A stretch of 64,000 nt of DNA from Galerina marginata. Lineage: Eukaryota > Basidiomycota > Agaricomycetes > Agaricales > Galerinaceae. A program made the position numbers and the translations under genes. Under the pieces are notes generated by a model. It was not told the origin of the DNA. It saw only the letters and a program-made list of their open reading frames with translations, and made no database searches. This document shows positions 511-54,720 of this stretch, piece after piece. The DNA is taken from positions 3,596,001 to 3,660,000 of the forward strand of contig JAECYW010000005.1 in assembly GCA_023014335.1 (NCBI GenBank), in the 5' to 3' direction. The number at the start of each line of letters is the position of its first letter. The first letter of the stretch is position 1.

Positions 511-1227
511 TACTTCGGGAGGTTGTGTATAAGTTGAGGGGGTGATTTTGAGCCGCATGTAAATGCTCGAGGATGGAAGGGATGTGCTGCAGGGTGAACC
601 AGCGTTGTCAGTTTTTGGACAAGTACATATGTCCCAAACAAGATTTGTGGCTGTGTCGGCTGGGTTCGCGCCGATTAAGCGCTCGTGAGGTTAAACATCA
701 CATTCCTCTTTTAAGACAATTTAGAGGTGTTGATTCTGAAACTTTGTGAAACAAAACAGGTTATCAAGTTGATCCACATTCACACGACACTAAAATATAA
801 CCAATGAAACGATCGCGAATCCCATAATATCACAGCAATCAATCAACACTAGGTGGTAACTGTGAGATCGTGCCTGTGGACCGACAGGCGACACCGAGGC
901 GTGCCGAGTAACAATCGGAATAAATTACCGTCGACTAAAAACATAGCTAATAATCTGAAGCATGATTGAATCATTTATCGGCTGCTCACTAAAATCTTAC
1001 CAGATGTTTGAATCAAACATAGTGACCGAGCAGTCAAAAAAAATATCTTGCTAACAGTTTGAATGAGAGGTAGTCTTGAAGATACCAAATATATCATATC
1101 ACTAAGTATATTTGGGAGTACACCACATTGTGTGCAATACCCACACTGTTGCACAGCCTGAAATTCACAGAAGACGACGGACGTTATATGCACGTCCAGC
1201 CCACACCTCACTTGATTCGTCGCCGCG
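511..1227 (+). promoter_or_regulatory. Shared 5' flank of membrane-protein copy A
   Basis: This stretch aligns by eye with the upstream regions of copies B (8930-9505) and C (from about 21080). A clear landmark is TTAAGCGCTCGTGAGGTT at about 675, 9100 and 21100, followed by shared 'CACTAAAATTA' and 'CCCATAATATCACAGCA' segments, and 'CCTGAAATTCA' about 70 bases before the ATG. Conservation over several hundred non-coding bases fits a promoter carried along with the duplicated gene. No certain TATA box was identified here. Confidence 0.55.
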
Positions 1228-2882
1228 ATGTTGCTCATCGTAATCACCCTCTACCTGTTCAAAGGTTTCTTCATCGCAGACGGTTCTCCCGTCTCCTCCG
1301 TCTTACCCCGACAAACCAGTACCGACCTTGGTGCTCCTCAGGACTGCATTTGCCCAGACACCCGCTCGCGATGGGACATTGTCTGGAGCTGTCTAGCAAC
1401 AATATTTGTGTGTACCTGGGTATCGGTTCACCCAAACATCCCAGCCCTGGGGGCATCGTGGTGGAAGAAATCATCTCGGCGGTTGGAGTTGATGTTCTGG
1501 TCCATTATTGCACCAGAACCTATGATATGGTGGGCGGCAAATCAGTGGGCAGCAGCCCGAACATTAGCCAGAAAATACAAGGGTGGGTATGATTGCAATA
1601 TTTCATGTCCTGTCGTTCTGATAGGTTTATGCCCAGAGTACGGATGGACAATGAGTCACGGTTATTTTATTCAGATGGGAGGTTTCATGTTGTATGACAA
1701 CAACAAGCCCATTGGGGTACTCGACCCCGATGAACTAGACAGACTCATCGAGGATGGAAGAATAGTGATGCCACGAACTACAGAGCAGGAAATTCAAGAC
1801 CGAAGTAAAAGTGACGGCCTGTCGAAGGCACTTATTGTCATCCAAACATCATGGTTTATTGGCCAAGGTATCGCGCGGAGGGCCCAGGGCCTAATTACCA
1901 CTGAGCTGGAGCTCGCAACACTCGCGTTTGCTGCCGTCAATGGCGTTATGTACATGTTTTGGTGGTTCAAACCCCTCGATGTTCAGACCACTGTCCGGGT
2001 CGACCTTTGCCATCCTAGGGTCCGAAATGTTCCGGTTGATCCTGCATTTGGTGAAGCTGATGGTTCGTGAATTTTGAATTGGTCCTTTCCACAACATCGC
2101 TCAATTTACGTTTTTGAGTAGATCAAACAGATATCTCACACATCCAACAAGAATTTCCGTCCAGTGAGCCTGAACTTCACCCAACACCAGGCAGCATCAC
2201 TGAACTTGGACGGAACAATGTGACCGAGATTGGGCGTGAAAATCTGATCCCATTTTCGAAGATGAGATCGTACCAGAGCATGAAAAACTCCAAGTTTCAA
2301 TACACGTGTTCCTCGGTGTGGTGGCTTATATCTGGCATTTTGTTTCGTTGGCCAGCAAATGGGATCAATGCTCTCATAATGAGAGTTGCAGACATCTTTA
2401 ACAGCGACACCATTGACAAGGGTGCACTGGGTGTTCCAATGTTTTACATCTATGATGTTCCCCTCGAACCAAGCTGGCCAGAAACTTCAGTGGTTATTTT
2501 CATTTCATTTGTCAGTATTCTATTCGGTTCAATTCATTGTGCAGGCTGGAAGTTTTCCTTCCCTTCACTCATTGAAGCCAACGTCTGGCGCATCTCTTCA
2601 GCGATTATCACAAGTGTACCCGTGATGGTCCTGGTAATCGAAATTTATGTTGTTCATCTGGCAAGCTATTTCTCTTTCCTCAAATCATTGAGGAAAAATT
2701 CCCTAGTCCAAGAGATGCTGGAGCTGCTTGACACATTCATGCGCATAATTTTTATTGTGTTAACCCTGCTCTACATCATGGCACGACTGGCCTTGTTGGT
2801 GGTGGCTCTTACTACGCTTCGGGACCTCCCACCAGGAGCGTTGGCGGTGGTGGAATGGACCTCATTTCTGCCTCACATTTGA
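1228..2882 (+). CDS. Copy A: uncharacterised basidiomycete multi-span membrane protein
   Basis: Exons 1228-1582, 1637-2062 and 2122-2882 give 513 residues. An N-terminal hydrophobic stretch (residues 1-19) looks like a signal peptide. It is followed by a CxCPDTRSRWDI motif (residues 40-51), spans near 51-67 and 86-105, a HGYFIQMGGFMLYDN motif, a pair of helices ending in WWFKPLDV, then FGSIHCAGW, an EANVWRISSAIIT helix, and a final helix before the terminal FLPHI. Seven or eight spans are likely. Families with this CPDTRS / SCLATIF / VSVHPNIP signature are abundant in agaricomycetes and have no assigned function. Intron 1 (54 nt) is in frame and stop-free, so an unspliced product would also be open. 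The third coding intron found in the other copies is missing here. It converges on tetraspanin remnant T1. Confidence 0.85.
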
Positions 2883-3335
2883 TCGGGAACGCTCCTCCAA
2901 AGGCCGGTTATACCCCTCATAATCGGCCAAGAGCCGGAAAAGGAGCTCGATCAAAGGTGAATCCCATAAAATCATTATATGGCATGAAGCTAACCCTTTT
3001 TTCAAGGTGTCAGCAATAGCCTACGGAGTTGGTTCAGCAGGATATGAATATTTTTTCCGCGTCTCACGGTTCTGTATTTTTCTTCCCTTTTTTTACCGGA
3101 TTGCGCCACTTCTTCCCCACCACGCCTCGGACTTGAAAGGCAGTAGTAAATTTAGTTACTTGGGATCGTATACCAAATTCTCGCTTGCGTCTTAGTACTA
3201 TTACCGGATAGTAGTGTAGACACCGCTCTTCATAAATATGCTCTCAATTCAACCATCTATTGGCATACCTCTTCGAACATGTAGTCTCCTCGTGGTTCAC
3301 TGTGTCGGACGCATGCCATTTCGTTCGTTTCCTGA
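2883..3335 (+). repeat. 3' flank of copy A, shared with copy E; holds a conserved candidate intron
   Basis: The sequence after the stop matches, inverted, the 3' flank of copy E (48085-48520) almost throughout, ending near the TTTCGTTCGTTTCCTGAC landmark. A candidate intron runs from a GTGAAT donor (2957) to a TTCAAG acceptor (3006) with a GAAGCTAACC branch-site-like motif. It begins about 74 nt past the stop. Equivalent introns sit after the stop in copies B, C, D and E. Confidence 0.65.
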
Positions 3336-3860: not shown

Positions 3861-4920
3861 CGTCATGCGTTCAATTTGCGTCTACATACTGGCGGCTACA
3901 GGAAAGGATGGACTGCGAGTGTAAAGCACAGTTAGCACCGCCTCGGGCTGCAGGTTCGGATTCACCCTCGAGCGCGTGGACACATACTCCCGGTACCTCC
4001 TTTCCGTACTTAACTGCCTGACTGGAAAAGTAGAAGGAAGCATCAGTATGGAACCGAAGCCATATAATAGTCAAAAAACAAGCAAATGAAAAGAAGGAGA
4101 GAAAGCAGAAAGAAGAGAAACACAGCTCACAGCTCACATACATATTCGTAACAAGCATACTAGGCGACACGTCTTCACTGTGGTTGGCACACAGCAAGTC
4201 CGCGATGATCACCGGCAAATGCAGCGGCACCATCCCAAACGCCAGCACGAGCTCTGGGCTGTCGGCTGTGCGGAGGATGTCGGCCCGCGTCTAGATGTTG
4301 AACCGTGTGAGGAGGGTGAGGACGATGGTTGGGAACGAGTAGGCTGTCCTGGCGAAGTCGGGTGTGGGTTAGTGACCGCGAGAAGAAAGAAATAGGAAGG
4401 ATCTACACCTCCAGTACCATCCGTGCCGTACGCGTTGTCCCATTTGCAGGTGTGCCAATCCTTGACTCGCCGCCTGGAACACATCCACTGTCATCATCCA
4501 CACTGCCGCCCACGTTGAGCACCATTCCCGCACTGCAATTCAATGGGTCTTTCAGCTGTGCCCCACCACACCCACGTAGGCAACGCGCCGCCAGGGATTA
4601 ATGCGCGACGACAAGGATGAAAGAAGCAGACTGAAGACCGAGCTCGTGATGTAGATCATGCTGAGCCTCAAGCGAGAAGCTGTTGTCCGCCGTCGCTAAG
4701 TTGTGGTGCCCGGCAGACTTGAATGAGGCTGGAGGGGCTAGATCGGGGGAACGTATCGCGAGCGGGAGGAAGAGAAGAGGAGGGTTGGGGGGCTCGCGAT
4801 GCCTGGTGGGCTGCTGCTGCGGTGGAGGAGCGGCGAGTCGAACCACATGCTGAGCGGATAGGTGTCGTTGAGACGCAATATTTGGGTGGTGCAGTTGGAT
4901 ATAGGAGAAGACGCAACAGA
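3860..4920 (-). pseudogene. T1: decayed tetraspanin (Tsp2-like) copy
   Basis: Read on the minus strand, pieces in the same order as the intact gene at 45228-47252 can be seen: the 5' exon region (4480-4920), the last membrane span (4170-4250, including VPLHLPVIIADLLCANH), and the start of the last exon (3930-4015). They lie in different frames with stops between, and the CCG extracellular-loop region is not recognisable. It faces copy A tail-to-tail. Confidence 0.75.
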
Positions 4921-5330: not shown

Positions 5331-7150
5331 TGATCAGGCAGGATGGATTTTGATTCCGAGGCTCGTTTTCTCATAAACTCCCTCGACGCAGACCGAAAAC
5401 GACAGCCTGGCACGATACCAGAGTCCATAAACCAAGTACGAAGCAAGGATCTCTCATGTGGAGACTGTACCTACCATGTTCACCGCCTCAGAGTCGCCTC
5501 GCTTCTATTTTGGACCTGCGAACATATAGTGCCAGGCTGCCTATTCGCAATGCATCCTTCGGCTTACACTTTGCATTATGGAACAGTTTTCTTATTGAAG
5601 TGTTGCTGCTGACACTCTGTTTGTTTGAATCCGCCAGGAGGATAGAGCGAACAAGGGGCTTAGATCTTAGGTATGTAAACAGGATCATCAACCCGATCTT
5701 CCAATTCTGACCCTCTTATCCGTCTACCCATCCTTCTCCGGCAGGTCATATTTCACTTCCACCATCGATTGACATCCCTCCCCCCAAAATTTCTGCGTCT
5801 TGAGATGGCCCAGCGTCCTCATCGCCGTGCAGAGACTGTGAAGATCCACAAGTTGGGTCGTTTATTGTAACCTGCAGTTTCGCCCAACTCTTGGTAAATG
5901 ACTTCTTGTCATTTCTGCACAGCTGTGGCTTTGGATACCTGATCACCAAGCTTTGAAGCTCAAACTTCACTCCATCTCATCGCTCGCAGAGTCGTGCTCT
6001 ATCTACGGAGTCGCTAGCAATTGCAGCCCTGGTCCAATCTGATCTCCTCCCATGTAATCGACATCGTACTCGATGCCCTGATCCGAAGACGGGGATCATG
6101 AAATCTGGTGCTGACTGCCTTGCTAGCCTATCTCCAAGGGACTGGCTCGGTGATAAGTCCGCTCTGAAGTCCCATCGTGTTTACTATCCTTCGATCTCGT
6201 TTGAACAGCTCATTTCAAGTTTTATTTCGTCGTGCTTTCTGGCTGGGTTTCCAGGATGGCATGCTCAGATTTCGGAGTTTCGAGCCTTGCTTTCGAAGTC
6301 TCCTCCCGATTCTGATCTGCTCTGCCTGTAATGTTTCACAAGACCTAGCCAAAAATTGACCGGAAACTGCACCGATCAAAAAACCCACCGCCTCTCGTGC
6401 CATAAAATTCAACACTGAGGCGCAGTTCGCTGCTCATCCGGATCCTTTCTCAAACTTTTCTTCCCAGTTGACTGTTCAAATCTTCTTTCTGGCTGGATCT
6501 TTGTGGAGTATACTCAGAAATAGGAGCTGGGGCCGTGCATTCACATAGGCAGCCGTTCTATTCTGGTAAGCCCACGCTCGGTTAACAGATCCAGCCAAAA
6601 TTCGACTCGAACTTGCCTCGTATTTCTCATTTCCTTCAGCGTCGCTCTTGATGAATGATCAATTCCCAGTTGATGGCCATACACCCTTCGATTCTACATG
6701 TCAGCCTATTCCATTTATCAATCCTGGCTTCCCGGATACCTCGCTCGCTCGCTCTACCTTTTCTGCAACGCCTTAGACTGGACTTTACGGCGACCTCGCA
6801 ATCTCGATCCTGGCTAGATTTTTCGAGAGCAGCTCCTCAGAAGTAGTCGCGGAGCCGTGTACTTCAAATATACAGTCTTCGGTCCTACTCTGATTTCGCA
6901 GGATACTTGCCAAATCTAGCCATAAATTTGACTCAGTGCAGGAAGTCCATAGATACTCTGACTTCAGCTTTTGACCAGTCAACAGTGTCTTCAGCTACTT
7001 ACTTAATGTCTGTTCGTCGCGTTTAACCTTCGCGGTTTTCCAACTTAACTTATCGTGATTCTTATAGCCATCAAATTGAATCTATACCAACATTCACGAA
7101 ACATACTAATTTAGTGCCGGCGACTGCGATTTCGACATGAGTTTTCACCT
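5330..7150 (+). repeat. Repeat R, copy b (near-complete)
   Basis: This is a non-coding dispersed repeat, adjacent to a tetraspanin 5' flank here and in several other copies. It contains three units of about 113-122 bp (6234-6355, 6484-6600, 6808-6926), each starting with a TCTGGCTGGAT-like end and finishing with the inverted ATCCAGCCAAAA-like end, and each followed by a conserved 'TTGACTCGAACTGC'-like tail. Other copies are near 14.8-17.1, 18.7-20.4, 26.1-31.1, 34.4-38.7 and 38.7-40.0 kb, and inverted at 50.6-52.3 and 56.8-59.2 kb. No transposase frame is visible. Confidence 0.7.
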
Positions 7151-7157
7151 ACGACAT

Positions 7158-8198: not shown

Positions 8199-8206
8199 TA
8201 CAACAT

Positions 8207-8600: not shown

Positions 8601-8605
8601 CTCTT

Positions 8606-8914: not shown

Positions 8915-8929
8915 CAAAAAAGACTTAAT

Positions 8930-9505: not shown

Positions 9506-11229
9506 ATGTTGTTCATGTTAATGACTCTCTATCTGTTTCAAGGTTTAATTAATGTCGACGCCGCTCCCTTCTTTGTTATCTTACACCGACAAACCAGTAC
9601 AGATCCTACTACCCCTCAAGAATGTGTTTGTCCGGATACTCGATCGCGATGGGATATTGTTCAAAGCTGTCTAGCCACCATATTCGCATGCACATGGGTG
9701 TCCGTTCATCCAAACATCCCAGCTCTAGGGGAACCATGGTGGAAAAGAGTGCTTCAGCGGTTGGAGTTGATGCTCTTGTCCATGATGGCGCCTGAACTTA
9801 TCATATATTCGGCGGCAAAGGAGTGGGCAGCAGCTCGACATTTAGCTGAAATTTACAAAGGTGCATATGATTGTGTTATCTGAGATTACGTCCTTCTCAT
9901 ATGTTTACGTTCAGAACACGGGTGGACGATGAGGCATGGTTACTTTCTTCAGATGGGCGGCTTTATGTTGTACGACAACGACAAGCCTAATGGGGTACTT
10001 AACCCCTATCAATTAGACAGACTTCTCAAGGAAGGAAAGGTAGTAATGCCGCCAACTACGGATGAAGAAATCCAAGACCGAAGCAAAGCGATGGTCTCTC
10101 GAAGGCACTTGTTGTCATTCAAACAACCTGGTTTATCTACCAGTGTATTGCGCGGAGGGTCCAGGGACTTATTATTACTGAGCTGGAGCTCGTAACACTC
10201 GCCTTTGCCGCCCTCAATGGTGTCATGTATATGTTCTGGTGGTTCAAACCCCTTGATGTCCAGACCACTGTCCGCATCGACCTCTTGGTTTCCAAGTGTG
10301 AAAAGCTTCCGGTATTTGTTCAGGCTGACGGTTCGTGAATTATTCCTTTCCACAACATTGCTCGATTTATATCTTTTTGTGTAGCCATAGACCGGAGCGG
10401 CATTTCACAAATCTCACAAGAACTCCAATTCAGTCAGCTTGAAAATACGCCCAGAGTATCCAGCATTAATAAAATTGGACTGGAGGATGCGGCCAGTGAT
10501 TTAGTAGGTAAGCAGCGCCGCAAACTATGACCGTCGTGCATTAGATAAAAAATTTCTTTTCAAGAAACCGAGATTGGACATGAAAATCTGACCCTATCTC
10601 CGTACCAGAGCATAAAATCCTCCAAGTTTCAGGATTTATGTTCTTTAGTATGGTGGTTCGTATCTGGCATTTTATTTCGTTGGCCAGGAACTGCGACGGA
10701 AGCTGTCATCAAAAGGAGAAATAAATTCATCTTCAATAGCCACACCGTCGAGAAGGGTACAGAGAGTATTCCAAGGTTCTACTTCTCCTACACTTACTAC
10801 CCAAAAGAACCCTGGGTAGGACGGATCGTGATTATTTGCCCTCCGTTGGTCGGCATCCTATTCGGTGCCATCCATTGTGCAGGCTGGAACTTGTCCTTCC
10901 CATCGGTCATCGAAGCCAATATCTGGCGAGTTTCTTCAGCAATTATCACCACCGTGCCGGTGACGTTTTTGCTACTTGTGATTTATGCTGGCCTTCGCAC
11001 ACGATTTGGAGACCATTTCCTTGTCCCCGAATCCTTGAAGAACAATTTCCTTGTCCAAAGGATCCTGCATGTTCTTGAACGCTCCCTGAAGATCGCTTTG
11101 AGTGGCCTAGTGCTGTTCTACATCATAGCGCGACTGGCCCTGTTGGTAGTGGCAGTCATTGCGCTTCGGGATCTCCCTCTAGAAGCATTGACGGCAGTGA
11201 AATGGACGTCATTTCTGCCTCACATTTGA
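9506..11229 (+). pseudogene. Copy B: membrane-protein gene with one frameshift
   Basis: Exons 9506-9860, 9915-10330, 10385-10507 and 10565-11229 match copy C exon for exon, with introns of 54, 54 and 57 nt. All splice sites are GT-AG. Exon 2 is one base shorter than required. Compared with copies A, C, D and E, one A is missing from the run in the codons for RSKSDG (near 10084-10087), which moves translation into a frame that stops at 10195. Everything downstream is otherwise open and ends in the family's FLPHI. It is either a very young pseudogene or a one-base assembly error. The protein would be a multi-span membrane protein like copy A. Confidence 0.8.
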
Positions 11230-12570: not shown

Positions 12571-14480
12571 CTAGGGGCGAGGTGGAATTGAAGGGGCTAA
12601 ACGCCCAGGACTCCGAGAGGAGAACGGAGATATGGATGGAGAGACGAACTGGGGGGCAGACGGACGAGGGGTGGACGGTGGAGGTACGAGCAGGTCAATG
12701 CCATGGGCAGACGAAAGGGAGGTAGAAAAGGTGGGGTGCGTCCGCATCGTCGTCCAATTCCGGCCAGAAGGACAGAACCGCGTCGGCCCAATCATACGCA
12801 CAATCTCCCTTTCCCGTAACCATTCCTCTTCAACGGAAGTTGAAGTAGAGACGTCAGCGCCAGCACATCCACTACGATAGGGCGGGGCAGGAGACGGGGT
12901 GTACTGCACGGTCTGCATTGCCTCGGGCTGCAGGTTCCAATTCGACTGCGAGCACGCGAGCACCTCCGCGGCTACTTTCCTCCTTTCCATAATGTTCCGC
13001 GAGTTGACTGGAAAGTAAAAGGGGGTGTCAGTACGAAAATAGAAGGTGAAATAAAAGGGAGAAAAAGAAAGAAAGACAAGCAGAAAGAAAAGGAAAGAAA
13101 AAGAAGTAAGATAAGTACGTGCTCTCAAGAAAAAAAAGGAGAGAAAGACAACAAAAATAAAAAACTGACGCAATCCGCATATTCGTCTTCCTGAGGCACT
13201 TGTGTTGTTCCGGCTTAGGTTGGTCTTCACTTTGACGTTGATTAAGTCGCGTTGGGATGCGAGGTATTCCGGGATAAGAATCAACCAGAGGACGACCCAC
13301 AGGAGGTGGTCGGAGACCAAGAGGAGGGAGCAGTTATTGGTGAGCTGCTCGGCATCCGAGAAGCGCGAAGAGGAGGCTGATGCATGCAGCGAGGGTGGAT
13401 AAGACGACGAAGGGGCGGCGCCGGTGCAGAGGGTTTTGGCGTGTGATTAGATGTTGAGCCTTGTGAGAAGACTGAGAATAACGCTTGAGAGGGAGTGGGT
13501 TGTTAGCTAGTGAAGTTCGATTATTGTTAGTAGCTACTCGGAAAAGAAGGGAATGCGAGATTGCGCTTACGAGGATGTTGGCGGTGAACAGGACCCCCTG
13601 GAAGTGATTCCACCGCAGCTTCCGCGAAGCGGCGTCGTCGTCATTGTCATCAATGCAGGCCTATCGACTCTTGCCTCGCGGTTCCGATGCGTCCCCGACG
13701 CCCTCCTTGTCGGCCTCCTTACGCCAGATTGAACCAGTGCGACGACAATGGGGATGACCAGCGAGCTGGACAACTTCATCGGCACTGGTTCATGCTTGAC
13801 GAAATAGTGTTTTTGCTGTCGTTTGTCCATCCAGAGATGATGATAAAAGCGAAAAGAACCCAAAATGTGGGCGTCGAGCACACGTGGGGGTGAAAGAAAC
13901 CACTTGGAGCAGTTCCACGTCAGCTTCCGCGGAATGTGCTTCGACCCTATCGAGCCCAGTCGGAACAATGCGCCGTTCATCCCACCCCGTTCCCGCTACC
14001 ACCATCGACATAATCATCTCTCTCATCCACAGGCTCGCCAACCAACGCCTAGCCGCTCGGGACGCATCCGTCACGCTCCCCATCTTAAGGACGATCCCTG
14101 CGCTGGGGTTCAGCATCAGCGGATCATTGAACCTTGCCCTGCCCGCATCTGCGCAGGCAACGCGACGTCGGAGATCAGGAGGCGACGAGTGGGGCCAAAG
14201 AGGAGAGAAGCGGGTGTGGCGGACTCGAGCGTGGCTGGAAGGGCTGTCGCTGCTGCCGTCGCTGTGCAGGGGATCGGGCTGGAGGAGTCGTTCAACGTTG
14301 AACCGCGGCTTGAGGGGATCGAACGGCATATTGTGATGGACAAGGGGTGTCGTTGAGGCGCAGCAATAGAGACCAGAAGGTGGGAAGGAGGCTGGGCCTG
14401 CCAGCAAGAAAGATGGCGGATTCAAAGGTACAGCTTTGACCCCTACGGGCACTTGAGCAACGAGGGCCAGGAACACTTTA
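12571..14480 (-). pseudogene. T2: decayed tetraspanin copy with internal exon-1 duplication
   Basis: On the minus strand the 5' exon (14120-14450, starting MPFDPLKPRFN), the pre-membrane segment, part of the membrane region and the last exon (around 12890-13010, NSRNIMERRKVAAEVLACS, compare QLAEQYGDEVAADVLTRS in T5) are recognisable. The exon-1 region carrying the KDP-NP-AG-VPKMG and LRWN motifs occurs twice, at about 13590-13740 and 13900-14130. T3 has the same duplication. Frames are broken. Although a 249-codon frame (12571-13320) runs across the old last intron and exon, it lacks the CCG loop and most of the membrane domain. Confidence 0.75.
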
Positions 14481-17150: not shown

Positions 17151-17224
17151 CAACGCATAGACTTAACAGCATTCTGTCTGACTCTGTCCAGCTGGAAAGA
17201 AAGACAAAGAAAAAGAGAAATTAA

Positions 17225-18299: not shown

Positions 18300-18720
18300 C
18301 TCTGGAAGATGTCCATTCCGCCGCCCGCCTGGGACCATCTCCTCGCCGGGGTCCAGTGGGTCCGTTAGGCTTGCATCACCCAGACCTACGCAGCTCTACG
18401 CAGGCGATGCACCGCCGGGGCGAAAACGGCGATATAGAGCAAAGGAGAGGAGACTTGCTCTGCATTTGGTTTACGCTGAGTGAGGTCCTGATGTCCGCAG
18501 TCGCGTAAACGTTGGCTAGGACTGGGACAGACGTCTCGGGAGTGGAAGAATGAGAAGAAGGAGCTCGCGAGGCTTGTGAAGCCTGGCGGGTTACCGCCGT
18601 TGTACAGGAGCATTGAGCAGGAGGAGTCGGGATGCCGTTGGCCACTTTCTGAGAGCATTCACCGCCGTCGGTCACTCGACGCTTTCTCTGGCTTGTCGTT
18701 GTCGTAGGGAACAACTTAAA
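18300..18720 (-). pseudogene. T2b: tetraspanin 5'-exon remnant
   Basis: Minus-strand pieces match the N-terminal part of T5: NPPGFTSLASSF followed by SRDVCPSP (compare SPPGFASPTSPF and SRDVSPSP), then 'LTQRKPNAEQ' out of frame with SLSVNYVPSKF. Nothing beyond the first exon can be identified. The 590 bases to its left (17711-18300) contain no supported gene. Confidence 0.6.
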
Positions 18721-18749
18721 ACTCGGCTGGAGAGGGAATCAAAGATTTA

Positions 18750-32005: not shown

Positions 32006-32009
32006 TTAG

Positions 32010-42419: not shown

Positions 42420-44930
42420 GCGGGAAAGCTCACACAGAGGCCGGTTCTATCCCGCATTGTCAGCAGGGGACTGAATCAAAGGTGAATCCTGACATAGAAC
42501 TGTTACGTGATGTGAAGCTAACCCTATTTTTAAAGTGTCAGGAATGGCGTACCAAGCAGTGGCTCAGCATGATATAGTTTTTATCTCCCGTTTCCGTATT
42601 TTCTTCCATTTTTGTACCGGACTTTTCCCCACCACACGCCTTGGACCTGAAAGATATAGTAGTGTATTTAATTACTCAGGCTTATATACCAAACCCCAAA
42701 ATCCCTGCACGCATTTTAGTATTTCGGATAGTTGGGACATTGTTCTTCAAATGTATTTATATGTTCATAGACTGACTGTCGAGCTCATCTCTTGTAAGCC
42801 TACTTAATTCAGTTCATGCCGGAACGCGTGCCATTTCATTTGTTTTCTGAATTCGAAGACGAAAGGCTGAGAGTTCTAGTGTTGAGCTCAAGTTCTCTAT
42901 GTATTTCGACGAACTTCCAGGAGGCAATATTAGTCCAACTAAATCAAAAATTTGTACTGATTAACGCTAATCGAACAGACCACTCACATGGCGGGTCCAA
43001 GGCAAGCGGGATGAAGAAGATGGTCGCATAAGCGAGGTATATGGAAACTGGGGAGACAGGTGCGAACAAAGTCGAATAGATATGAATTTTGTGGTTCTGA
43101 AGCTAATCGCTGAGAGCTTATGTTACCCGCACCTCGAACGCTTGACTCTCACTCTAAGGCTCATCCGCTCCTCGGCCGTCAATTGCCATTTACGAATCTT
43201 GGGGAAGGGAAAGACTCAGTGATCATGAGTTACGGTTGACGGAAACGACAGTCTAAGATTAAATATTAAGGACTTGAATAGTAGGACTTGAATAGTTCGT
43301 ACATATCTTTTTGAGCATTTTGCTTGGACTGTGCCACCGCGCCACTTCACATTGGTGGAGGTTTAAGTTTTGACTGGTAATTCTGAACCCGTTAACGAGA
43401 TCTATGACCTATGCGGTCAGAGTCGATGGCTGGTTAAAGATGAGTTATGCACTTACTCGTGCTGAGAATGTAAAATCAATATCGATACCGATTACCTCCA
43501 AGCTGCTTCCAGAGCGCCTACGCGTATAGAGTAGAGATATTTCGAACCGATTCGCCTTGACGACTCGGGCGACAACGATTTGATTGTTTCTGTCCTTGAA
43601 ATTCGGGACTCTTCCTGCTTTCGAACTTCGCACTGCCGTAGCACTAGCTTTATTCCTCGAGCTCTCGTTCAGATAGAAACTGAACACGTCAGATCCAAGA
43701 GCGCGGAGCCTTCGGGTCTCTCGAATCATCCTGTGGTTGGGGTAGTGTTTGACTTAGACGATCGCGGTTGTCGCCTGTAGCGGGGTCGAGGGCGGAGTGT
43801 TCTATGAGGGTGCGGGTGATTCAAGTTCTGCCGATGATTGCTGACGACGGGGATGAACGATGGGGTTGTTTGGTATAGTATTGGAACTGGGGCAACTCGC
43901 TGGTGTGAATCGTACTTGAATAGATCTTGATATGAATTTGGATGTTGTGGAAGGTTGAAATGAGACTTACGTATATTATCTGCGCCTCGAACGCTTGACT
44001 CTTAGACTTGCTGGCGCGCTCGTCTACTCCTCGGACGTCAATATTTCAAAGTGCAGTCTTCGAATCTGGAGGTAGGAAAAGGCTCGATGAGCTAGGATCG
44101 ATGTTTGAAGCGACAGATCAAAAACCTGAATGGTTGGTACCTACAGGTTTCGCGTGTTTCTGTATTCAATTCTGAGCTCCGTAAATTTGCATAAGCTGGC
44201 GAGGCGCATTGGGTCAATTCACAGCGGTGGTACTGCATCTGGAGAAAGTCTTGTGTTGATATGTGGTCGTTAAGAACGACATGGTAGACCCGAACCAATA
44301 TGCAGTCAGTGGCTGGAGGATAAGTTGTGTCGTAAGATCATTACCGTTTCTCCTCGAAAGGCTTCAACTTGAATAACGCCTACTCGTGTTGATATCTTAA
44401 ACTAATTCGCCTTGACGACTCGGACGACGACGACTTGATTGTTTCTGTCGTTGGCACTGATCCGGTGTTTACATCGCCTTGCATTTCCTTAGCCTAGCAA
44501 TAGCATTCCCTCCTCCGAGTCCCGTTCAGATAGTAACTCACGAGCCGTCGAGTCTCAAATCAGGAAACCGCAAGAAAGGAAAGATTTGACGAGTCACGAC
44601 ACGGCGATGAAAAATGCTCGCCACCACTGCGGTTGATGACGACGTGTTGATGAGCTAACAGGGCCGGATGGTAAGATGCTAGATTTGTGAGATGCTGGAA
44701 TCGTAGGCTTCTAATTCAGTACAGAATCCGTCAAAAAAATTAGAAAGAACGAAAAGGCCAATTGACGATATGCGTTTCTTGCGATGCCTGGAGATTTAGA
44801 GGTGCTTCAAGGCGCTTGAACCTCTCGGACGATTTCTAAGAATAATTAAAGATCGTCACCCAAGCCGGCTTGGCACGCTAAAGACCAAACGGTGCATGTG
44901 GGAAACTTGACCCGATCTGAACAACAGCGT
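42420..44930. other. Intergenic region with relic segments
   Basis: The first part carries the candidate post-stop intron of copy D (42482-42535, GTGAATCC donor, GAAGCTAACC motif, TAAAG acceptor). Further on are two diverged copies of the acidic exon fragment described at 8606-8914 (about 43480-43620 and 44390-44490). The gene-sized open frames here show no family signature. Confidence 0.45.
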
Positions 44931-45227
44931 GGACGATGATGAGATCAGTGTCCTTCCTTTCCTCCTCACCACCACCTGCAGTCTCGGACTGCCGCCATTG
45001 CGGACTCTCCTGGTTTTCTGTCGTCAAGTACCGGCAGCGACGCCACCATTACGATTCCGAACGTTCCTGGCTGTCTCTGCTCGAGTGCCGATAGCGGGCC
45101 CAGTCGTTCTTTTTTCGCCATAGCTTCCCGTGGGCAAACAGCGAGCTAGACCTCCTTTCCGTCTTCTAGCCTCTATCCAGCCGCATAACCCCCATCCTGG
45201 ACTTCAACGACCACCATCTGGCGCAAC
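44930..45227 (+). promoter_or_regulatory. 5' flank of the intact tetraspanin T5
   Basis: It aligns, inverted, with the flank upstream of T4 (33120-33280): TCCTTCCTTTC then CTCACCA, CTGCAGTCTCG, a CGTTCCTGGCTCTCT-like block, and TTTTCTAGC(C/T)TCTATC. Homology stops near 44930, so the outer flank and repeat R found beside the decayed copies are absent here. No TATA box was identified with confidence. Confidence 0.5.
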
Positions 45228-47252
45228 ATGCAGTTCGACCCCCCAAAACCGCGGTTCACCCGCCCCCAACAGCGCCCCAGCTCCTCCAGCTCGACGCTCT
45301 TGCACAGCAGCGGCAGCCCGCCCGGCTTCGCAAGCCCAACGAGCCCGTTCTCCTCGCCCTCTCGATCTAGAGACGTCTCACCATCACCTGGCCGAGCCCC
45401 GCCCCACGCCCTTGCCCTAGCCAACGCCTACGAGACTCCCGGACAGCACCACGGCCTGGCGACAGGAGACAGCAGTGCCTCGCTAAGCGTGAACTACGTA
45501 CCAAGCAAGTTCTCCAACCCCCTGCTATCCTCCCCTGCCGGGCCTAGACGGCGCATGACCCGCGGCGGCGCGGCGTCGGCGAGGTTGAAGGACCCGCTGA
45601 ACCCTGGGGCGGGGATGGTGCCTAAGATGGGGGGCGGCGTGGATGCGTTCCGGAGTGGGGAGGCGAGGATTGGAGGTCCTGCGGATGAGGACGATGATGA
45701 TGATGACGGGAATGACAGTGGAAGTGGGGCGGACGGCGCCTTGTTCGGGCGGGGACGAAGAGGCTCGAAGCACGCTCCAAGAAAGCTGCGGTGGAATCGG
45801 TTCAAATGGGTCCTATTCGCCGCCAACCTCCTCGTAAGTCCCCTCCCCCCCTCCCAACCTCCTATCCCTGTCATACGAACTAACCCCTTTTCCAGCTAAC
45901 GATCTACTCATTCACAACCCTCATCCTCACCCTCCTCACATGGTTCAACATCTTCCCACACGCCGCCATCCTTCGCTCGGGAAACACCCCCGAACTCGTC
46001 CTATCCACCCTCGCAGCCTGCACCGGCATCCTCGTCTGCCTCCTCGGCTGGGCCGGCCTGCTCACAAACAACCGCTCCTTCCTCGCTGTCTACACCCTCC
46101 TCCTCTGGGTCGTATTCGCGTTCATCCTCGTCCCCGGCTACCTCACCTACAAACGACGCACATTCAACCTCGAAGGAAAGATCAACCTCCAATGGTCCAA
46201 ACACCTCGGCGAAGACGGCCGGCTCACAATCCAAAACGAGCTCCAATGCTGCGGTTACTTCTCCCCCTTCGTCGAAGCCACCGTTAGCCAGACGTGCTAC
46301 GCGCGGAGCATCCTGCCGGGGTGTAAAGCGCGGTATCTGGCTTTTGAGAGGAAGGTGCTGAGGGTGTGGTATGGAGTGGCGTTTGGGTTGGTGCCGCTGC
46401 ATTTGGCGGTGATGGTGGCGGGGTTGCTGTGTGCGAACCATGTGACGTATCGGTTTGGGAAGGGGATGATGCCCAAGGCGTATAGATTGAGTGTGGCTAG
46501 TATGGCGGTTATTATGGATAATTATGCGGGGTACGTGTTTTTCCTTCGTTTTTTCTTTCTTTCTCGTCTCTCTTTTTGCTTTAGGCGTGTCTTTGTGAAT
46601 TTTTTTCCTTTTTTTGTTGCTTTTCATTATTTTTTTTCTTCGCTTCTCTATCCCTCTCCCTTCTACACCGCATACATCCAACACTAACACCCCCCCCCCC
46701 CTTCCTCCCATCTCATCCAGTCAACTAGCCGAACAATACGGCGACGAAGTAGCAGCTGACGTGCTCACCCGCTCGAGGTCGAATCTGAACTTGCAGCTCG
46801 AGGCGCTGCCTTCCGTACCGTACGCCCCGTCCGGTCCTGCTGGTGCTGGTGCTGCGGGTGCGGGTGCGGGTGCGGGTGTGAATGAGGGCCGGACGCGGGA
46901 AAGGAGGAGCCATGAACGAAGCCATGAGCGGAGCCGCGAGGGGAAATCGCATGAAGGACGGTCGCACGAAGGGAGGAGCCACGAAGGAAGGTCCCATGAA
47001 GGACGGTCGCACGAAAGCCGCTCACACGAAAGCCGCTCACACGAAGGAAGGTCTCACGAAGGACGGTCGCATGAAAGACGGTCGCACGAAAGGAGGAGCC
47101 ACGAAGGGAGGTCGCATGAAGGCAGGAGTTACGAGCCGCGCACGCCTGGAGCTGAGACGAGGACGCATGGGGGGCGCGGGGTGAGGTATGATAAGCTCAG
47201 TACGCGGGTGCCTTTTGCGGAGTCTGAGGAGGCGGGGGCGGGGTTGAGGTGA
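45228..47252 (+). CDS. tsp2: T5: tetraspanin, Tsp2 family (only intact copy)
   Basis: Exons 45228-45833, 45896-46530 and 46721-47252 give 590 residues; introns are GT-AG. The cytosolic N-terminal ~195 residues are disordered, with SLSVNYVPSKFSNPL and an acidic run, followed by spans near 196-220, 235-258 and 265-290. The large loop holds the CCG tetraspanin signature (CCGYFSPFVEATVSQTCYAR) plus two further Cys, then span 4 (VPLHLAVMVAGLLCANH) and the conserved GKGMMPKAYRLS and QLAEQYGDEVAADV tail. Tetraspanins organise plasma-membrane protein complexes; Tsp2 is a basidiomycete group. The C-terminus is extended by about fifteen SHEGR-like pentapeptides. It converges on copy E. Confidence 0.93.
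46903..47135 (+). repeat. 15-bp coding minisatellite (SHEGR repeats)
   Basis: Within the last exon of T5 a 15-bp unit close to AGCCACGAAGGAAGG repeats about fifteen times and encodes Ser-His-Glu-(Gly/Arg/Ser)-Arg pentapeptides. The result is a long, highly charged, probably disordered cytosolic tail. I do not see this array in the last exons of T1, T2, T3 or T6. A preceding Gly/Ala stretch (46840-46880) is also repetitive. Confidence 0.9.
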
Positions 47253-48520: not shown

Positions 48521-50297
48521 TCAAATGTGAGGCAGAAATGAGATCCATTCCACCACCGCCAACGCTCCTGGTGGGAGGTCCCGAAGCGTAGTAAGTGCCA
48601 CCACCAACAGGGCCAGTCGGGCCACGATGTAGAGCGGGATTGACACAATAAAAATGATGACTATGAATGTTTTAAGGACATTCAGCATCTCTTGAACCAG
48701 GAAATTATTCGCCAAGGATTTGGGAACAAGAAAATTGCGCCCAAAAATTGGCCAAACTTGAAGAGCACTATAAATCCCCAGTCCCAGGACCATCACCGGG
48801 ACACTTGTGATAATTGCTGAAGATATGCGCCAGATGTTGGCTTCGATGAGGGAAGGGAAGGAGAAATGCCAGCCTGCGCAATGAATGGCACCGAATAGAA
48901 TACCGACAAATGGAATGGAAATACCCACAGGAAACTCTTCCCAGTGGTCAAATTCGGATTCAGAGGACACACCAAACATATAAAACATTGGAACACCCAT
49001 TGCACCCTTGACAATGGGGTCGCATTCAAAGGCGTCTCCGATGAGGCCGATCCTCGTTATCACAGCATTTATCCCATTTGCTGGCCAACGATACAAGACG
49101 CCAGATATTATCCGCCACACCGACGACCATAGGTCCCGAAGTGTCAGATCTTTTATGCTCTGGTGCGATCTCGCGTTGGAGGATGGGATGAGATATCCAA
49201 CTTCGATCCCGTGGTCTTATAAACGAAGCAAAAGAATTAATTGATGCATAATGTGCGTAGTCTACAGTTAATGACTCACCGTCTGAGTCCTTGGACGTGT
49301 CTTCCGGTTCCTGGTTCTCGAGACGGATGATGCTAGGTATTGTAGTAATTTCAAGGGCACTGTAAGAAGGGTCTTGTGAGGCGTGTGAGCTTTGGGTTCG
49401 ATCCATGACTACTGAATGTGATGCAATCTTAGCGATAAAATTGAAAAGATCGATTCACGAACCATCATCCTGAACAACTACAGGGTCGACCGGAAGCTTT
49501 TGGGGCCTGGAGGGCAGGATGTTGACCCGGACAGCACTCTGGACATCAAGGGGTTTAAACCACCAAAACATATACATGAAGGCATTGAGGCCAGCAAACG
49601 CGAGTGTTGCAAGCTCCAGCTCAGTGGTAATCAGTCCCTGGACCCTCCGTGCAAGACATTGAGAGATAAACCAGGCTGTTTGTACGACAACCAATGCCTT
49701 CGAGAGACCGTCGCTTTTGCTTCGGTCTTGAATTTCCTCCTCCGTGGTTTGTGGCATCACTATTTTTCCGTCCTCTAGGAGTCTGTCCAGTTCATTGGGG
49801 TCGAGTACCTCAATGGGCTTGTCGTTTTTGTACAACATGAAACCTCCCATCTGAATAAAGTAACCATGACTCGTTGTCCATCCATACTCTGAACGAAAAC
49901 TTATCAGAAGCTGGGCACATGAAATATTGCAGTCATACGCGCCCTTGTATTTTCTGCCTAAACTTCGAGCTCCGTCCCACTGCCTCGTCGCCCAGAATAT
50001 GATAAGTTCTGGCGCAATAAGGGACCAGAGCATCAACTCAAACCGCCTCAATATTTTCTTCCACCACGGTTCTCCAAGGGCTGGGATATTTGGGTGAACC
50101 GACACCCATGTACACACAAATATTGTTGCTAAACAGCTCCAGACGATGTCCCATCGCGATCGTGTATCCGGACAAGTGCATTCTTGAGGGACAGTGGGAG
50201 TGATATCCGTTTGTCGGGGTAAAATGTGAGAGAGAGGAGCGGCGTCAGCATTGAAGGAACCTTGAAGCAGGTAGAGGGTGGCTAAGACTAATGTCAT
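48521..50297 (-). CDS. Copy E: multi-span membrane protein with altered intron 1
   Basis: Start at 50297 (MTLVLATLYLLQGSFNADA); an in-frame ATG-less extension upstream crosses a TATA-like box and is unlikely. Exons on the minus strand: 50297-49943, 49888-49463, 49408-49280 and 49215-48521 (534 residues if intron 1 is removed). The donor of intron 1 reads GC instead of GT, and its 54 bases are in frame and stop-free, so the transcript may keep it (552 residues). Motifs: CTCPDTRSRWDIV, HGYFIQMGGFMLY, WWFKPLDV, FGAIHCAGW, SLIEANIWRISSAIIT, final FLPHI. The linker between the two halves differs most from the other copies (ENQEPEDTSKDSD). It faces intact tetraspanin T5. Confidence 0.86.
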
Positions 50298-50350
50298 TGT
50301 AGGAACAGGGAACAAAGTCAAGTGGAGAGTCGACGTACTTTTAATGTCCC

Positions 50351-50357
50351 CTATATA
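50351..50357 (-). promoter_or_regulatory. TATA-like box of copy E
   Basis: TATATAG on the minus strand lies 54 bases upstream of the chosen ATG, a plausible spacing for a TATA box and short leader. This supports the start at 50297 rather than further upstream. Confidence 0.4.
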
Positions 50358-50379
50358 ACTGAAAGGCACGCAAGCGGCG

Positions 50380-52310
50380 TGTTAAAAACAATGCCGTTTC
50401 GTTTGTGCAAGCACGTGCAGAAGTCGCAGTTCCCAGCACCGTGATATGTTAAGTATCATTCCTGCTAGATATATCCATTCTTAAGGCAGACCGAACGAAG
50501 GAGGACTGGATTATGTATTGACGTTGAACTATATACTGGTGAGCTTTGCTGATGCGTCTACAGATGCGAGGAAACTGAAGGACAAACGAACATTCAACAT
50601 TGACGTCGTCTATTGTACGACCAAAACACACGATGTCGTACATGCAAACACATGTAGAAGTCGTGGCAGTCTCCAGCACTGCTCTTAGTATGCTGTGTAA
50701 TAATGTAAGCCTGAATAAAAGGAAATTAATGGGATGCACACATACCAGATGAAGGCGCCGTCGACAGGCCGAAACCTTTAAGATTGAAAGACGAATTATT
50801 TGAGTGGACCGACCGAAAGCCTTGCCATTACGAACACCACGAGGTCTGCGCGAAGTCTAGGCGTTGCAGAAAACGCAGAGCGAGCGTGGTATGCCAGCCA
50901 GTACCGACAGATGTAATAAGATGAGGCTTGGAACTGGCGCTGGGAGCCAGAGAATTGTCTGGATATCAGGAGCGAAAATCCGAAATACAAGGCAGGTTCG
51001 AGTCGAACTTTGGCTGGGTCCGTTGAGCAGCTGTACGAGACCAGAATAGAACGGTTGCCCCTGTAAATAAATATATACACGGCTCCAGCTGCTATTTCTG
51101 AGTATGCATAAGCGAGATCCAGCCAGGAAGGACGTTACAAGCTGCCAACTCGAAAGCAGGGTAGAGGAATATACGAGGAACGTACCACACCACCGCGTTA
51201 GGTTGCTCAAACGAGGAATTTCAGAAGCTTGACGGTTTTTGGAGCTGAGGCAGTTTCAGTCGGTTTTTGGCTAGGTTTCGTAGATGCCTAGAGACACTGG
51301 CAGACATCATCAGAATATGGTTGGAGCCTTCGAAAGCGGGGCTCCAACTCCGAGATCTGAGTGTGCCAGCATCGAAACTCAGCCAGAAGGATGACAGAAT
51401 CAGCCGTTCGAGAATCGAGCATGATGAAGGAGGAATAGAACGAAGGAGGGATAGAAGGAGGAAAGATGTCAATGATAACGGAGGGTGCGTGGGTTTGTGA
51501 AAGTCGTCGTCTCAATTCTAAAGACACAGAAAGAACGTTGGCAAGAGAAGCATAAAGCATCGGCTAGGTGAAATGTATCGAGACTTACGTCCTGCTTTTC
51601 CATCCTTGTTCGCAGCTCACACAGCAGGTTCCCCGGAAACTGGGGATCAGGTAGCAAAGCAGGTATTCCAATGACTACTGATCTCCGTCTTTGGATCGGG
51701 CATCGAGTGCGAGGCCGATTGAGTTTGGAGAGAAGATGGCATTTGGCGAGCCCTGCACTTGCTAGTAGTTCTGTGCGTAAGGTGCAATGTGCCCAGACGT
51801 GCAGTCTCACGATCTCTGTGCGGCGATGGTGGTTAGAGGGAAAAGAGGGTCAAAACTGAAAGATCGGGTTGACAAGTCTGTTCAAATACCTGAAAGCTGA
51901 AGGGCCGAGCACTCGCTCTACCTTCTCCGCGAATTGAGCGAATGGAAAAAGGGATATATACTGCCAAATGCGAGATCTGAGAAGCGTGGGCGGATTGTTC
52001 CAGAATACAAAGTCCAAGTCAAAGGAAGCATTGACAAATTCGAATTAGAAGCCTAGCACAAGACCACCTCAGGACCATTTCACCGAGGCAGAAGCACCTG
52101 CACAAGGCGACTCTGAGGCGGTGGAAATGGTGGGTAAGACCACTTGAGAGCACCTATGTGTTGCTCTTGGGTTATGCGCCTCTAGTATTGTGGAAAGCTG
52201 CTTGTTTTGGGCATGCGTCGGGGGGAAGTTGGGTGAGAAGGTCCAGACTCCAGGAAAGCGAATCCACTGCGCATCTCAAGTTGATTGACTGCACGTGACT
52301 CGTGTTCGCA
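50380..52310 (-). repeat. Repeat R, inverted copy h
   Basis: It is read on the minus strand. The GGCGCCTTCATC / TTCAAATAATT-like segment is at about 50755-50800, unit two is marked by AGAATAGAACGG and CTGAGTATGCATA (about 51045-51125), unit one by CAGCCAGAAGGATGAC (51380-51396), and the E-box junction ACGTGACTCG is at 52294. Two similar ~75-base stretches (50380-50460 and 50600-50700) suggest a small tandem duplication at its outer end. Confidence 0.6.
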
Positions 52311-52539
52311 CAAAATTGAAATCAAATCAAAGCATTCTCCCTTGTTCTCGACGACAACGACGGGCACTACGAATAACTTATGCTTGAAATTGGCTATCTC
52401 AGTCTGCAACGTCACCGCGACTGGATCTCGTGGACGGGCTCGTCGTCGTATGATGTTTCCCTATCTTGGCTCTGGCGTCGACAAAGCCCCAGGATGCTCA
52501 ACTGCTCTTAACTTATAACCCGAAAGCGTAGACGATGGT

Positions 52540-54200
52540 GAGATAGAGCAAAACAAGAATCCGTCCTCTCTTACTCACCACCGCTTGCAGTCTCGGACTG
52601 CCGCGATTATGAACGTTTCTGCTCTCCCAGCCCAAGTGCTGTCCGTTGCCCCAGCTGTACCTTATCGCTGTCGTTTAACTTTCATCTTCGTAGATTCTAT
52701 CCAACCGCGCCATCAGCATCCTCCTCGACGTCGAACGAACTTCATCCTGCGCAGTATGCCGTTTGGTCCTCCCAAACTGCACTTCAACCCTCCAACGACG
52801 ACCTGACGCTTCCAGTTCGACCGTCCTCCACAACGACGGGGGCTGCCCGTAAGGGTTCGCCATGCGCAGTGTCATTGCGCACGAGCCCCTTTTTCGTGCT
52901 CTCCCCGTCCCTACCCCGCATGCTGTAGTCATGAGCACGAACTCCTTACGCGACTCGCGGCGGCGCGAGCGGTGGTGAGGCTGAAGGACCCACTGCAATC
53001 CGGTGCCGAGATAGTGCCCAAGATGGGCGGCAGAATGGATGCGTTCCGGAGCTGCAACGCGAGGATTGGCGAGCCTGTCTATGAGGACGATGAGGACGAT
53101 GCGGATGATAGTGGAAGTGTAAGCCCAGTCCCGCCGTTACTTCTTCCCCTAGTTTTTAACCTAAACGCGCGTCTGCCAGCTAGCGACATACTCCTTAGCG
53201 ACCTTCAGCTCCACACTGCTCGCATTCAACATCTGGCTGCACGCCGACATCATCCGCACGGGGAACAGCCCCGAGCTCGTACTGGTTTTTGGGGTGTTGC
53301 CGCTGCATTTGGCGGTGACGACGGCGGGCCTGCTGTATGCGTACCAAGACGTATCAGTTGAGTGTAGCTACTATGCTTACTATAAATAACTATGCTCGGT
53401 GCGTTTTTCTTCTTTTCTTCTTCTCTCTCCCTTCTTTATTTTTTTGGGCGTGTTTTTTCTTTTAGTTTCTGCTTTATTTTCATTTTCTTCTTATTCTTTG
53501 CTCTTATATGGTTTTCGTTTGCGTTGATGAGCACCTCGACCTGCAGGTGCGGGAGCAAAACCCCAACAACAACCACAAGGAGATGACTCGGTGTGCGAAC
53601 GGTTTCTTGGCTTCTGAGCGACCGTGCGAGTCCGCTAGCGACGGGTAGGAAGATCGGAGTGAGGCGCGCTGCGCGCCTAAAGCTAAAACGAGGTCGGAAT
53701 AATGTGTAGCGTAGTCTAAACTCAATAAAACGCGGTCTGAACGAAAGCTGAACGCAGTAAAAACGCGGGGTACTCTGAGAAAGTGAAGCTTAGTCGCAGT
53801 AAGATAAAAACGCAGTGAAAACGCGGGTGCTCTGAGAAACGCGGTGGGATTCTTCTCCAAGGGGAGGCCGAGCTCTACAAAATGTACAAAAGAGTTCTTA
53901 TAATGTGCTAAGAAGGCCTAGAACCATAACACGAGGCACAGAGAGGAATGAAGGGGATTTAGATAATATATAGGGGGATTGAATTAATAAAGAAGGGAAG
54001 GGGTCGGAGGGTGGATACCAGACAGAAGCACGAGGAATTACGGACCGCGATCGCGTTTTCAGAGGCTAGAGCGCGTGAACGCTCATCAGCGTACTGCACC
54101 CCTTCTACTTTCCAGTCAACTCGCGGAACAATGCGGAGACTATGGAGCGGCGGGCGTGCTCCTGCGCTCGCAGTCGAATTAGACTTGAAATCGTAGTAAT
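52540..54200 (+). pseudogene. T6: decayed tetraspanin copy
   Basis: The flank (52540-52755) and a start MPFGPPKLHFNPP (52756) match T5 exon 1. Then come AVVRLKDPLQSGAEIVPKMG (about 52967-53028), DAFRSCNARIG, a TM-region piece (53190-53370, with LPLHLAVTTAGLLYAY), and a last-exon relic near 54110-54180. Stops and deletions separate them. A foreign-looking stretch with ~65-bp tandem repeats (53740-53850, landmark GTGCTCTGAGAAA) interrupts the tail. Confidence 0.7.
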
Positions 54201-54477
54201 ATGAGAGTGAAGTCCTCAGACCCAGACACAGATCGAACGCATGACAAACATATGAAGAGAGAACCGACGCGCCCCACTTATTGCACTCCACTTCGTCTGG
54301 CCCCCTGTCATCGATTTACTTCCGCCACCTGCCCTCGTCCGTCAGTTTGGCTTTCAGTCCCTCCGTCAGTCTTTCCGTACTCATTCCGTTCATTCTTCTA
54401 GCTTTCCTCCGGGTTCCACCTTAGCCATCAGCATCGACGAAGCGACAGTACCCACTGGAATAGACCGCAATGTTACT

Positions 54478-54720
54478 GAGGTGGAATCGGTTCAATTAGG
54501 TCCTCCTCGCTGCCAACCTCCTTGTAAGCTTTTCCTGTTTTCTTCTTCTCCCGTTGTCACTAAAGTCAATACAACTCCTTCAGCTAACGACATCCTCCCT
54601 CATGACCGGCCAACGTTCTCCACACGGGGAACGCCCCGAACTCGTGCTATAAATCCTCGACGCCTCCGCTGCGATCCTCGTCGTGCGTGCCATCAATGCG
54701 AATACAATGGCTACCGTACT
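54478..54720 (+). pseudogene. T7: tetraspanin exon1-exon2 junction remnant
   Basis: A second partial copy begins at GAGGTGGAATCGGTTCAATT (compare the RWNRFKW codons of T5), has a GTAAGC donor, a TCCTTCAG acceptor and the start of exon 2 (CTAACGACATCC, then GAACGCCCCGAACTCGTGCTA), with a stop where T5 continues. It is probably a fragment left by local rearrangement downstream of T6. Confidence 0.6.

What the first reader, a model, noticed from the sequence alone, without database searches (positions are those of the whole stretch)
511..54720. Amplified convergent module: membrane-protein gene facing a tetraspanin gene, plus repeat R
A/T1, B/T2, C/T3 and inverted T5/E all have the same tail-to-tail arrangement, and in several copies the tetraspanin 5' flank abuts the same ~2 kb repeat R. 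The same order recurs over more than 50 kb, so the pair was copied as a unit, not as separate genes. Two membrane-associated genes kept convergent through several duplications may be a functional pair or a hitch-hiking one. I know of no description of such a module.
Basis: partly seen in the sequence, partly recalled or inferred. Interest (0 to 1): 0.75.

Follow-up and report, generated by a model that had tools for sequence, protein, structure and literature searches.

The report
Large tandem array of membrane-protein and tetraspanin genes
A mushroom chromosome carries dozens of copies of one DNA segment in which an uncharacterised membrane-protein gene faces a tetraspanin gene; the two were copied together, but nearly all tetraspanin copies have decayed while more than half of the membrane-gene copies stay open, so the pairing looks like a by-product of copying more than a working partnership.

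Summary
The window lies in a ~717-kb array (C39:3.140-3.856 Mb) of a fungal genome whose closest named relative is Galerina marginata. Merged hits give 26 membrane-gene (M), 45 tetraspanin (T) and 39 repeat (R) loci. The unit is M→ ←T R, head to tail, in two opposed arms; the switch lies in the window between D and T5. R is noncoding spacer; its 57 matches all lie in this array. Distances between units correlate for M-T and T-R, weakly for M-R: the segment was copied as a unit, then reshuffled.

A functional pair is poorly supported. Of 27 M copies, 17 project as open, 2 are uncertain and 8 are broken; only 4 of 45 T loci are intact. Open M occur beside T relics, and an insert with KDZ transposase domains separates one intact M from its intact T. 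The four intact T (Tsp2 family) are under strong purifying selection (dN/dS 0.07-0.10); M evolves faster (median 0.45), with two regions near 1. G. marginata M proteins interleave with array M in one clade, so the array or its founders predate that split. Verdict: old tandem segmental duplication with birth-and-death; hitch-hiking favoured.

The parts
1228..2882 (+). Membrane gene copy A (M family), open, 514 aa as projected; intron 3 not seen
9506..11229 (+). Membrane gene copy B, broken (frame lost in exon 2, one stop)
21537..23263 (+). Membrane gene copy C, open, 522 aa
40646..42419 (+). Membrane gene copy D, open, 534 aa; last + unit before the orientation switch
48521..50297 (-). Membrane gene copy E, open, 535 aa; exons 50297-49943, 49888-49463, 49411-49280, 49215-48521; intron 1 has a GC-AG form
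45228..47252 (+). T5, intact Tsp2-family tetraspanin, 590 aa; exons 45228-45833, 45896-46530, 46721-47252
3935..4837 (-). T1 tetraspanin relic, convergent to A
12887..14114 (-). T2 tetraspanin relic, convergent to B
18529..18641 (-). Tetraspanin exon-1 fragment beside an R copy, with no M of its own
24105..25572 (-). T3 tetraspanin relic, convergent to C
32027..33054 (-). T4 tetraspanin relic with no M of its own nearby
52952..54682 (+). T6 tetraspanin relic(s), right-arm orientation
5650..6976 (+). R copy 1 (noncoding spacer between T 5' end and the next M)
15078..16437 (+). R copy 2
19119..20083 (+). R copy, partial
26519..27876 (+). R copy 3 (query of the genome-wide R search)
34752..35499 (+). 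R copy, partial
38192..39683 (+). R copy, rearranged
50939..51787 (-). R copy, right-arm orientation
56907..58697 (-). R copy, right-arm orientation
42763..45227 (.). Interval holding the orientation switch between the two arms; a related M-to-T same-strand junction lies at three other array places

Best explanation
This is an old tandem segmental duplication array. An ancestral segment of roughly 10 kb carried a multipass membrane gene (M), a Tsp2 tetraspanin gene (T) facing it tail to tail, and a spacer (R) between the T 5' end and the next M. It was copied head to tail tens of times, most simply by unequal exchange (shown: order, orientation, shared spacer DNA; inferred: the exchange mechanism). 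An inversion of the distal part, with one breakpoint between D and T5, gave the two arms (inferred from gene order). Units were then reshuffled by exchange or gene conversion (shown as incongruent distances; mechanism inferred). Birth and death followed: more than half of the M copies stayed open and diversified, four T copies stayed intact under purifying selection, and the other T copies decayed. The convergent pairing is thus mainly hitch-hiking. The array, or at least its founding copies, is older than the split from G. marginata CBS 339.88.
For: Merged map of 26 M, 45 T and 39 R with near-uniform order and strand in each arm. R matches are confined to this array: 57 of 57 on C39 3.140-3.856 Mb. 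R looks noncoding: similar divergence in the three phases and few gaps that are multiples of 3. Distances correlate for M-T and T-R among 9 units. Homology among the four intact T units runs into the M-T intergenic DNA. M copies: 14 of 17 open in the first set; of 10 further copies, 3 open, 2 uncertain, 5 broken or fragments; together 17 of 27. Four T are intact, with dN/dS 0.066-0.104 in 6 of 6 pairs. In relic alignments 21 of 117 gaps are multiples of 3, against 10 of 14 in intact copies. In an ML tree the 14 array M, 7 of 8 included G. marginata M of its 627-kb contig length and 2 of 3 of its 2.06-Mb length form one 100/100 clade, interleaved. The G. marginata Tsp2 homolog (91% identical) is on a contig of the same 627,148-bp length. 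An insert with KDZ transposase domains separates an open M and an intact T in U2.
Against: M-R distances correlate only weakly (r 0.29, p 0.10), so strict co-copying of all three parts is not shown. M of B, u3185 and u3380 differ by 5-8% while their R differ by 25-29%. All four intact T have an open M partner, as a functional pair would predict; 13 of the other 23 M copies are open, so by hand calculation four of four would arise by chance with probability about 0.14. T relics still show a third-position excess against T5 (0.224, 0.181, 0.340), so at least some may have been under selection after duplication. 8 of 27 M copies are broken too, so decay is not confined to T. The ancestral single-copy locus was not seen.
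Confidence: 0.8

Rival explanations
1. Functional module: Tsp2 organises or traffics the M protein in the membrane, and the pair was amplified and kept together because it works together. The four intact pairs are the working modules.
For: All four intact T sit in units with an open M. Strong purifying selection on all four T. Tetraspanins are described as organisers of membrane-signalling complexes (PMC2278132, abstract passage seen).
Against: M is open in A, C and other units whose T is a relic. In U2 the two genes are about 17 kb apart. M loci listed on other contigs lack a close T hit, except a fragment pair on C7. No shared contig length outside Galerina in the 120 listed hits of each search. 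E and its U2 counterpart differ by dS 0.14 while the partner T differ by dS 0.33.
Confidence: 0.12
2. R is a mobile element that carried or targeted the two genes, so the array arose by repeated insertion.
For: R recurs in 57 matches.
Against: All 57 matches are inside one array with arm-specific orientation. R shows no coding signal. R lies where a unit spacer would lie. Terminal repeats and target-site duplications were not looked for.
Confidence: 0.03
3. The two-arm structure is an assembly misjoin in a repetitive region.
For: The contig ends inside an R copy and no TTAGGG match was listed there. Three contigs carry near-identical M copies.
Against: Arm orientation holds for hundreds of kb on both sides. 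A related same-strand M-to-T junction recurs at three other places at 66-88% identity, so that kind of junction exists independently of this join.
Confidence: 0.05

Closest known systems
Tsp2 tetraspanin family of basidiomycetes (PMC2278132)
   Same: T5 and the three other intact copies match PF00335, carry the CCG loop motif with further cysteines and have long N- and C-terminal tails. Multi-copy Tsp2 is already known (4 in Laccaria bicolor, 3 in Coprinus cinereus; passages).
   Different: Here four near-identical proteins plus dozens of relics lie in one tandem array with M genes; the C-terminal tail has a tandem pentapeptide repeat.
Uncharacterised agaricomycete multipass membrane family (GALMADRAFT_62095 and relatives)
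   Same: E and the other M copies are members (E is 62% identical to P0001); 531 proteins at E <= 0.001 among the 7995 candidates scored.
   Different: None in kind; the Galerina array is a lineage-specific expansion. Of 64 members scanned, no Pfam family matched more than 2, and the first member none.
Tandem segmental duplication arrays with birth-and-death evolution and gene conversion (general knowledge, not from a call)
   Same: Head-to-tail units, co-copied spacers and neighbours, pseudogenes, mosaic units, one gene diversifying.
   Different: The passenger gene is a tetraspanin whose four intact copies are nearly invariant in protein; the array is split into two opposed arms.

Membership tests
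Tsp2 tetraspanin | Tetraspanin domain (PF00335) above the curated cut-off | tested here: met
   T5 exon-2 ORF 38.3 bits, cut-off 32.1; all four intact array copies above cut-off
Tsp2 tetraspanin | CCG motif and further conserved cysteines in the large loop | tested here: met
   CCGY..C..GC visible in the T5, U2, U3 and U4 translations (for G. marginata)
Tsp2 tetraspanin | Long N-tail (83-200 aa) and C-tail (66-101 aa) as given in PMC2278132 | tested here: inconclusive
   N-tail about 195 aa; C-tail about 200 aa, longer than the published range; both estimated by eye from the translation
Tsp2 tetraspanin | Closest relatives named Tsp2 in basidiomycetes | tested here: met
   P0121 91% over 100%, and many of the 120 listed hits carry Tsp2 names
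Uncharacterised M family | Full-length sequence similarity with conserved WVSVHPNIP, PE..W..RQW and GWT..H...MGG blocks | tested here: met
Tandem segmental duplication array | Same gene order and orientation in successive units | tested here: met
   with 5 same-strand M-T cases and 4 M without T of 26
Tandem segmental duplication array | Noncoding spacer co-copied with the genes | tested here: met
   R noncoding and array-confined; T-R distances correlated, M-R only weakly
Functional convergent gene pair | Both genes kept or lost together | tested here: not met
   M open with T relic in A and C; M open without a convergent T in D
Functional convergent gene pair | Pair adjacent in other lineages | tested here: inconclusive
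   shared contig length only in G. marginata among listed hits; adjacency itself was not seen
Functional convergent gene pair | Co-expression or physical interaction | not testable with these tools
   no expression data held

The most novel reading that the evidence does not exclude
The array is a diversification engine for a surface-exposed fungal receptor family. M has a conserved core and two variable regions on one face of the membrane (dN/dS about 1), units are reshuffled among each other, and a nearly invariant Tsp2 is kept in several copies as its membrane organiser. That would be a mushroom counterpart of a recognition-gene cluster.
Probability: 0.12. Interest if true: 0.75.

Novelty: new member of a known kind. 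Interest (0 to 1): 0.45.

Why it matters
It shows a conserved membrane organiser gene copied dozens of times as a passenger of a fast-evolving membrane gene, with a clear contrast in fate: 17 of 27 M copies open and diversified, against 4 of 45 T loci intact, those four under strong purifying selection. It gives a natural test of whether tetraspanin dosage matters in mushrooms, and it names a large, uncharacterised agaricomycete membrane family with two variable regions as a candidate for recognition or signalling.

Tried and rejected

Limits and mends: a notebook entry says 12 contigs with telomere repeats; the listing shows 10. Merged counts depend on the gaps chosen. In the Mantel test one unit (u3410) has only 129 bp of M, and T zones are hard to align (distances up to 0.56). 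The first 17 M copies modelled were the window's own five, U3, and the best-scoring loci, so they were biased towards intact genes; I therefore fetched the nine remaining merged loci (with L046, L047), one of which holds two copies. Of these 10 copies, 3 project as open (3229, 3415, 3720), 2 are uncertain because exon 3 projects badly (3424, 3731) and 5 are broken or fragments. The same pairwise projection also fails on exon 3 of copy A, which lacks intron 3, so 'uncertain' may mean open. Projected splice acceptors at intron 2 are not AG in B, L018, L019 and L020, nor at intron 3 in L018; the counts are of open frames, not of proven splicing. Only the four intact T were modelled exon by exon; the other 41 T loci are called relics or fragments from their alignments. 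Two of them, at 3430784 and 3689334, are 97% and 89% identical but cover only the first 140 and 117 residues. dN/dS was by Nei-Gojobori with Jukes-Cantor, on the 14 open copies, without a likelihood test; windows above 1 are not tested for significance. The paper searches showed no title or abstract start describing such a module in the rows listed (5 of 5, 0 of 0, 10 of 4315, 6 of 6, 12 of 72, 12 of 249). Of the papers listed I read only passages of PMC2278132.
Full report
Location. The window is G000:C39:3596001-3660000 of a genome of 69.3 Mb in 43 contigs. Its T5 protein is 91% identical over its full length to a Galerina marginata CBS 339.88 protein, and its E protein is 62% identical to another. 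The genome itself is unnamed; a Galerina species other than that strain is my inference.

Observation. Self-comparison confirms five membrane-gene copies (A-E), several tetraspanin traces and several R copies. E has four exons and 535 aa; its first intron has a GC-AG form, which L010 shares. T5 has three exons and 590 aa, with a tetraspanin domain above the Pfam cut-off, a long N-tail and a C-tail with a tandem pentapeptide repeat.

Extent. Three genome searches (M protein, 128 matches; T protein, 102 matches; R DNA, 57 matches) were merged for C39 3.14-3.856 Mb: 26 M, 45 T, 39 R. Left of 3.640 Mb, M is + in 16 of 17, T is - in 27 of 29, R is + in 27 of 27; right of it, M is - in 9 of 9, T is + in 15 of 16, R is - in 12 of 12. 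So two opposed arms meet in the window between D and T5. Of 26 M loci, 17 have a convergent T as the next one 3' within 12 kb, 5 have one on the same strand, and 4 have none. Two of the 17 share their T with a neighbour, at 9.6 and 11.1 kb; for one of these (A) the nearer T1 relic is seen only. One of the four without T is U2, where the T is about 17 kb away behind an insert of about 14.6 kb with KDZ transposase domains. The tool warns that such counts are lower bounds. All 57 R matches lie on C39 between 3,139,993 and the contig end at 3,856,235. R lies between a T 5' end and the next M, so the unit reads M, T, R, M, T, R.

Age. In an ML tree of 38 proteins the 14 open array M, 7 of the 8 included G. 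marginata M of the 627-kb contig length and 2 of 3 of the 2.06-Mb length form one 100/100 clade and interleave, with pairs L039-P0002, L011-P0004, L017-P0007 and D-P0008. The array or its founding copies therefore predate the split. The eighth 627-kb row (P0047) and the third 2.06-Mb row (P0014) fell outside on long branches. Among G. marginata proteins only one Tsp2 appears in the 120 listed hits (P0121); it differs from the four array proteins at 23-35 aligned residues, while they differ from each other at 19-29.

Copied together, then reshuffled. For nine units pairwise distances correlate for M-T (r 0.68, p 0.002) and T-R (r 0.72, p 0.002) and weakly for M-R (r 0.29, p 0.10). Mosaic signs: M of B, u3185 and u3380 differ by 5-8% while their R differ by 25-29%. 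Among intact units, E and the U2 M have dS 0.14, whereas T5 and the U2 T have dS 0.33. Against U1, intergenic DNA of U3 is 87% identical but M exon 4 is 69%. A same-strand M-to-T junction like D-T5 recurs at three other array places at 66-88% identity.

Fate of the two genes. Of 17 M copies modelled first, 14 are open; B, L020 and L026 are broken. That set leaned towards the best matches, so the rest were fetched and examined: of 10 further copies 3 are open, 2 uncertain and 5 broken or fragments. Together 17 of 27 are open, 2 uncertain and 8 broken. Four T genes are intact (573-590 aa) with dS 0.33-0.41 and dN/dS 0.066-0.104 in 6 of 6 pairs; the other 41 of 45 T loci are relics or fragments by their alignments. 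In the relic alignments held, 21 of 117 gaps are multiples of three, against 10 of 14 in intact copies. Relics keep a third-position excess against T5 (0.224, 0.181, 0.340), so they need not have been dead from the start. For M, 91 pairs of the 14 open copies give median dS 0.50, dN 0.24 and dN/dS 0.45 (range 0.26-0.66). Along M the first twelve 40-codon windows give 0.10-0.37, except one of 0.59, and two regions near E residues 365-397 and 458-497 reach 1.15 and 1.05. In the model of the relative P0001 these map to the stretch between helices 287-323 and 347-380 and to that around the gap between helices 386-423 and 433-451. If each of these helices crosses the membrane once, the two lie on the same side; which side was not determined.

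What M is. The family is found across many agaricomycete genera in the listed hits and is uncharacterised. No Pfam family matched the first member, no PDB relative by sequence at E below 0.5, and no convincing fold match.

Reading. The best account is an old tandem segmental duplication with an inversion, reshuffling and birth-and-death, in which Tsp2 rode along with M and survived intact in four places. The pair is not needed for M to persist. Whether T is needed for some M is open: all four intact T have an open M partner, but 13 of the other 23 M copies are open as well, so this could be chance (about 0.14 by hand calculation). A functional module keeps a probability of about 0.12; the added M copies did not change my odds.

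Literature. Tsp2 is known as a basidiomycete family with several paralogs (PMC2278132, passages). The listings showed no title or abstract start on such an array; most subscription papers are absent from the library.

Noticed in passing
L040-L041 (C39:3274600-3289300): The 14.6-kb insert between the open M and the intact T of unit U2 holds a KDZ transposase (PF18758 E 2.9e-34) and a CxC2 domain (PF18803 E 3.9e-18).
   Followed up: partly
window 62376-63999: Minus-strand ORFs at the right end include a CxC4 domain (PF18717 E 3.3e-13) of a KDZ-type element.
   Followed up: partly
window 7158-7546 and 7812-8200: Inverted repeat, arms 389 nt and 89% complementary, 265 nt apart, between units A and B.
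   Followed up: no
window 46922-47138: 15-bp tandem repeat coding for a pentapeptide repeat in the T5 C-tail; its length differs among the four intact T.
   Followed up: partly
window 28504-29223: G+C-rich degenerate direct repeats between units.
   Followed up: no
G000:C7:634836-635785: A T exon-1 fragment and an M fragment lie side by side on the same strand outside the array.
   Followed up: no
L023, L024, L025 (C27, C17, C19): M copies 95-99.97% identical on three contigs, possibly haplotype copies or recent segmental duplications.
   Followed up: no
L012 and L015 (C39 right arm): Two M loci about 102 kb apart are 93.5% identical over 3 kb, a recent copy within one arm.
   Followed up: partly
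L049 (C39:3229200-3232200) and L052 (C39:3719200-3721900): Two M copies in opposite arms project with the same four exon lengths, including an exon 2 that is 48 nt shorter than in E; they may be a recent cross-arm copy.
   Followed up: no
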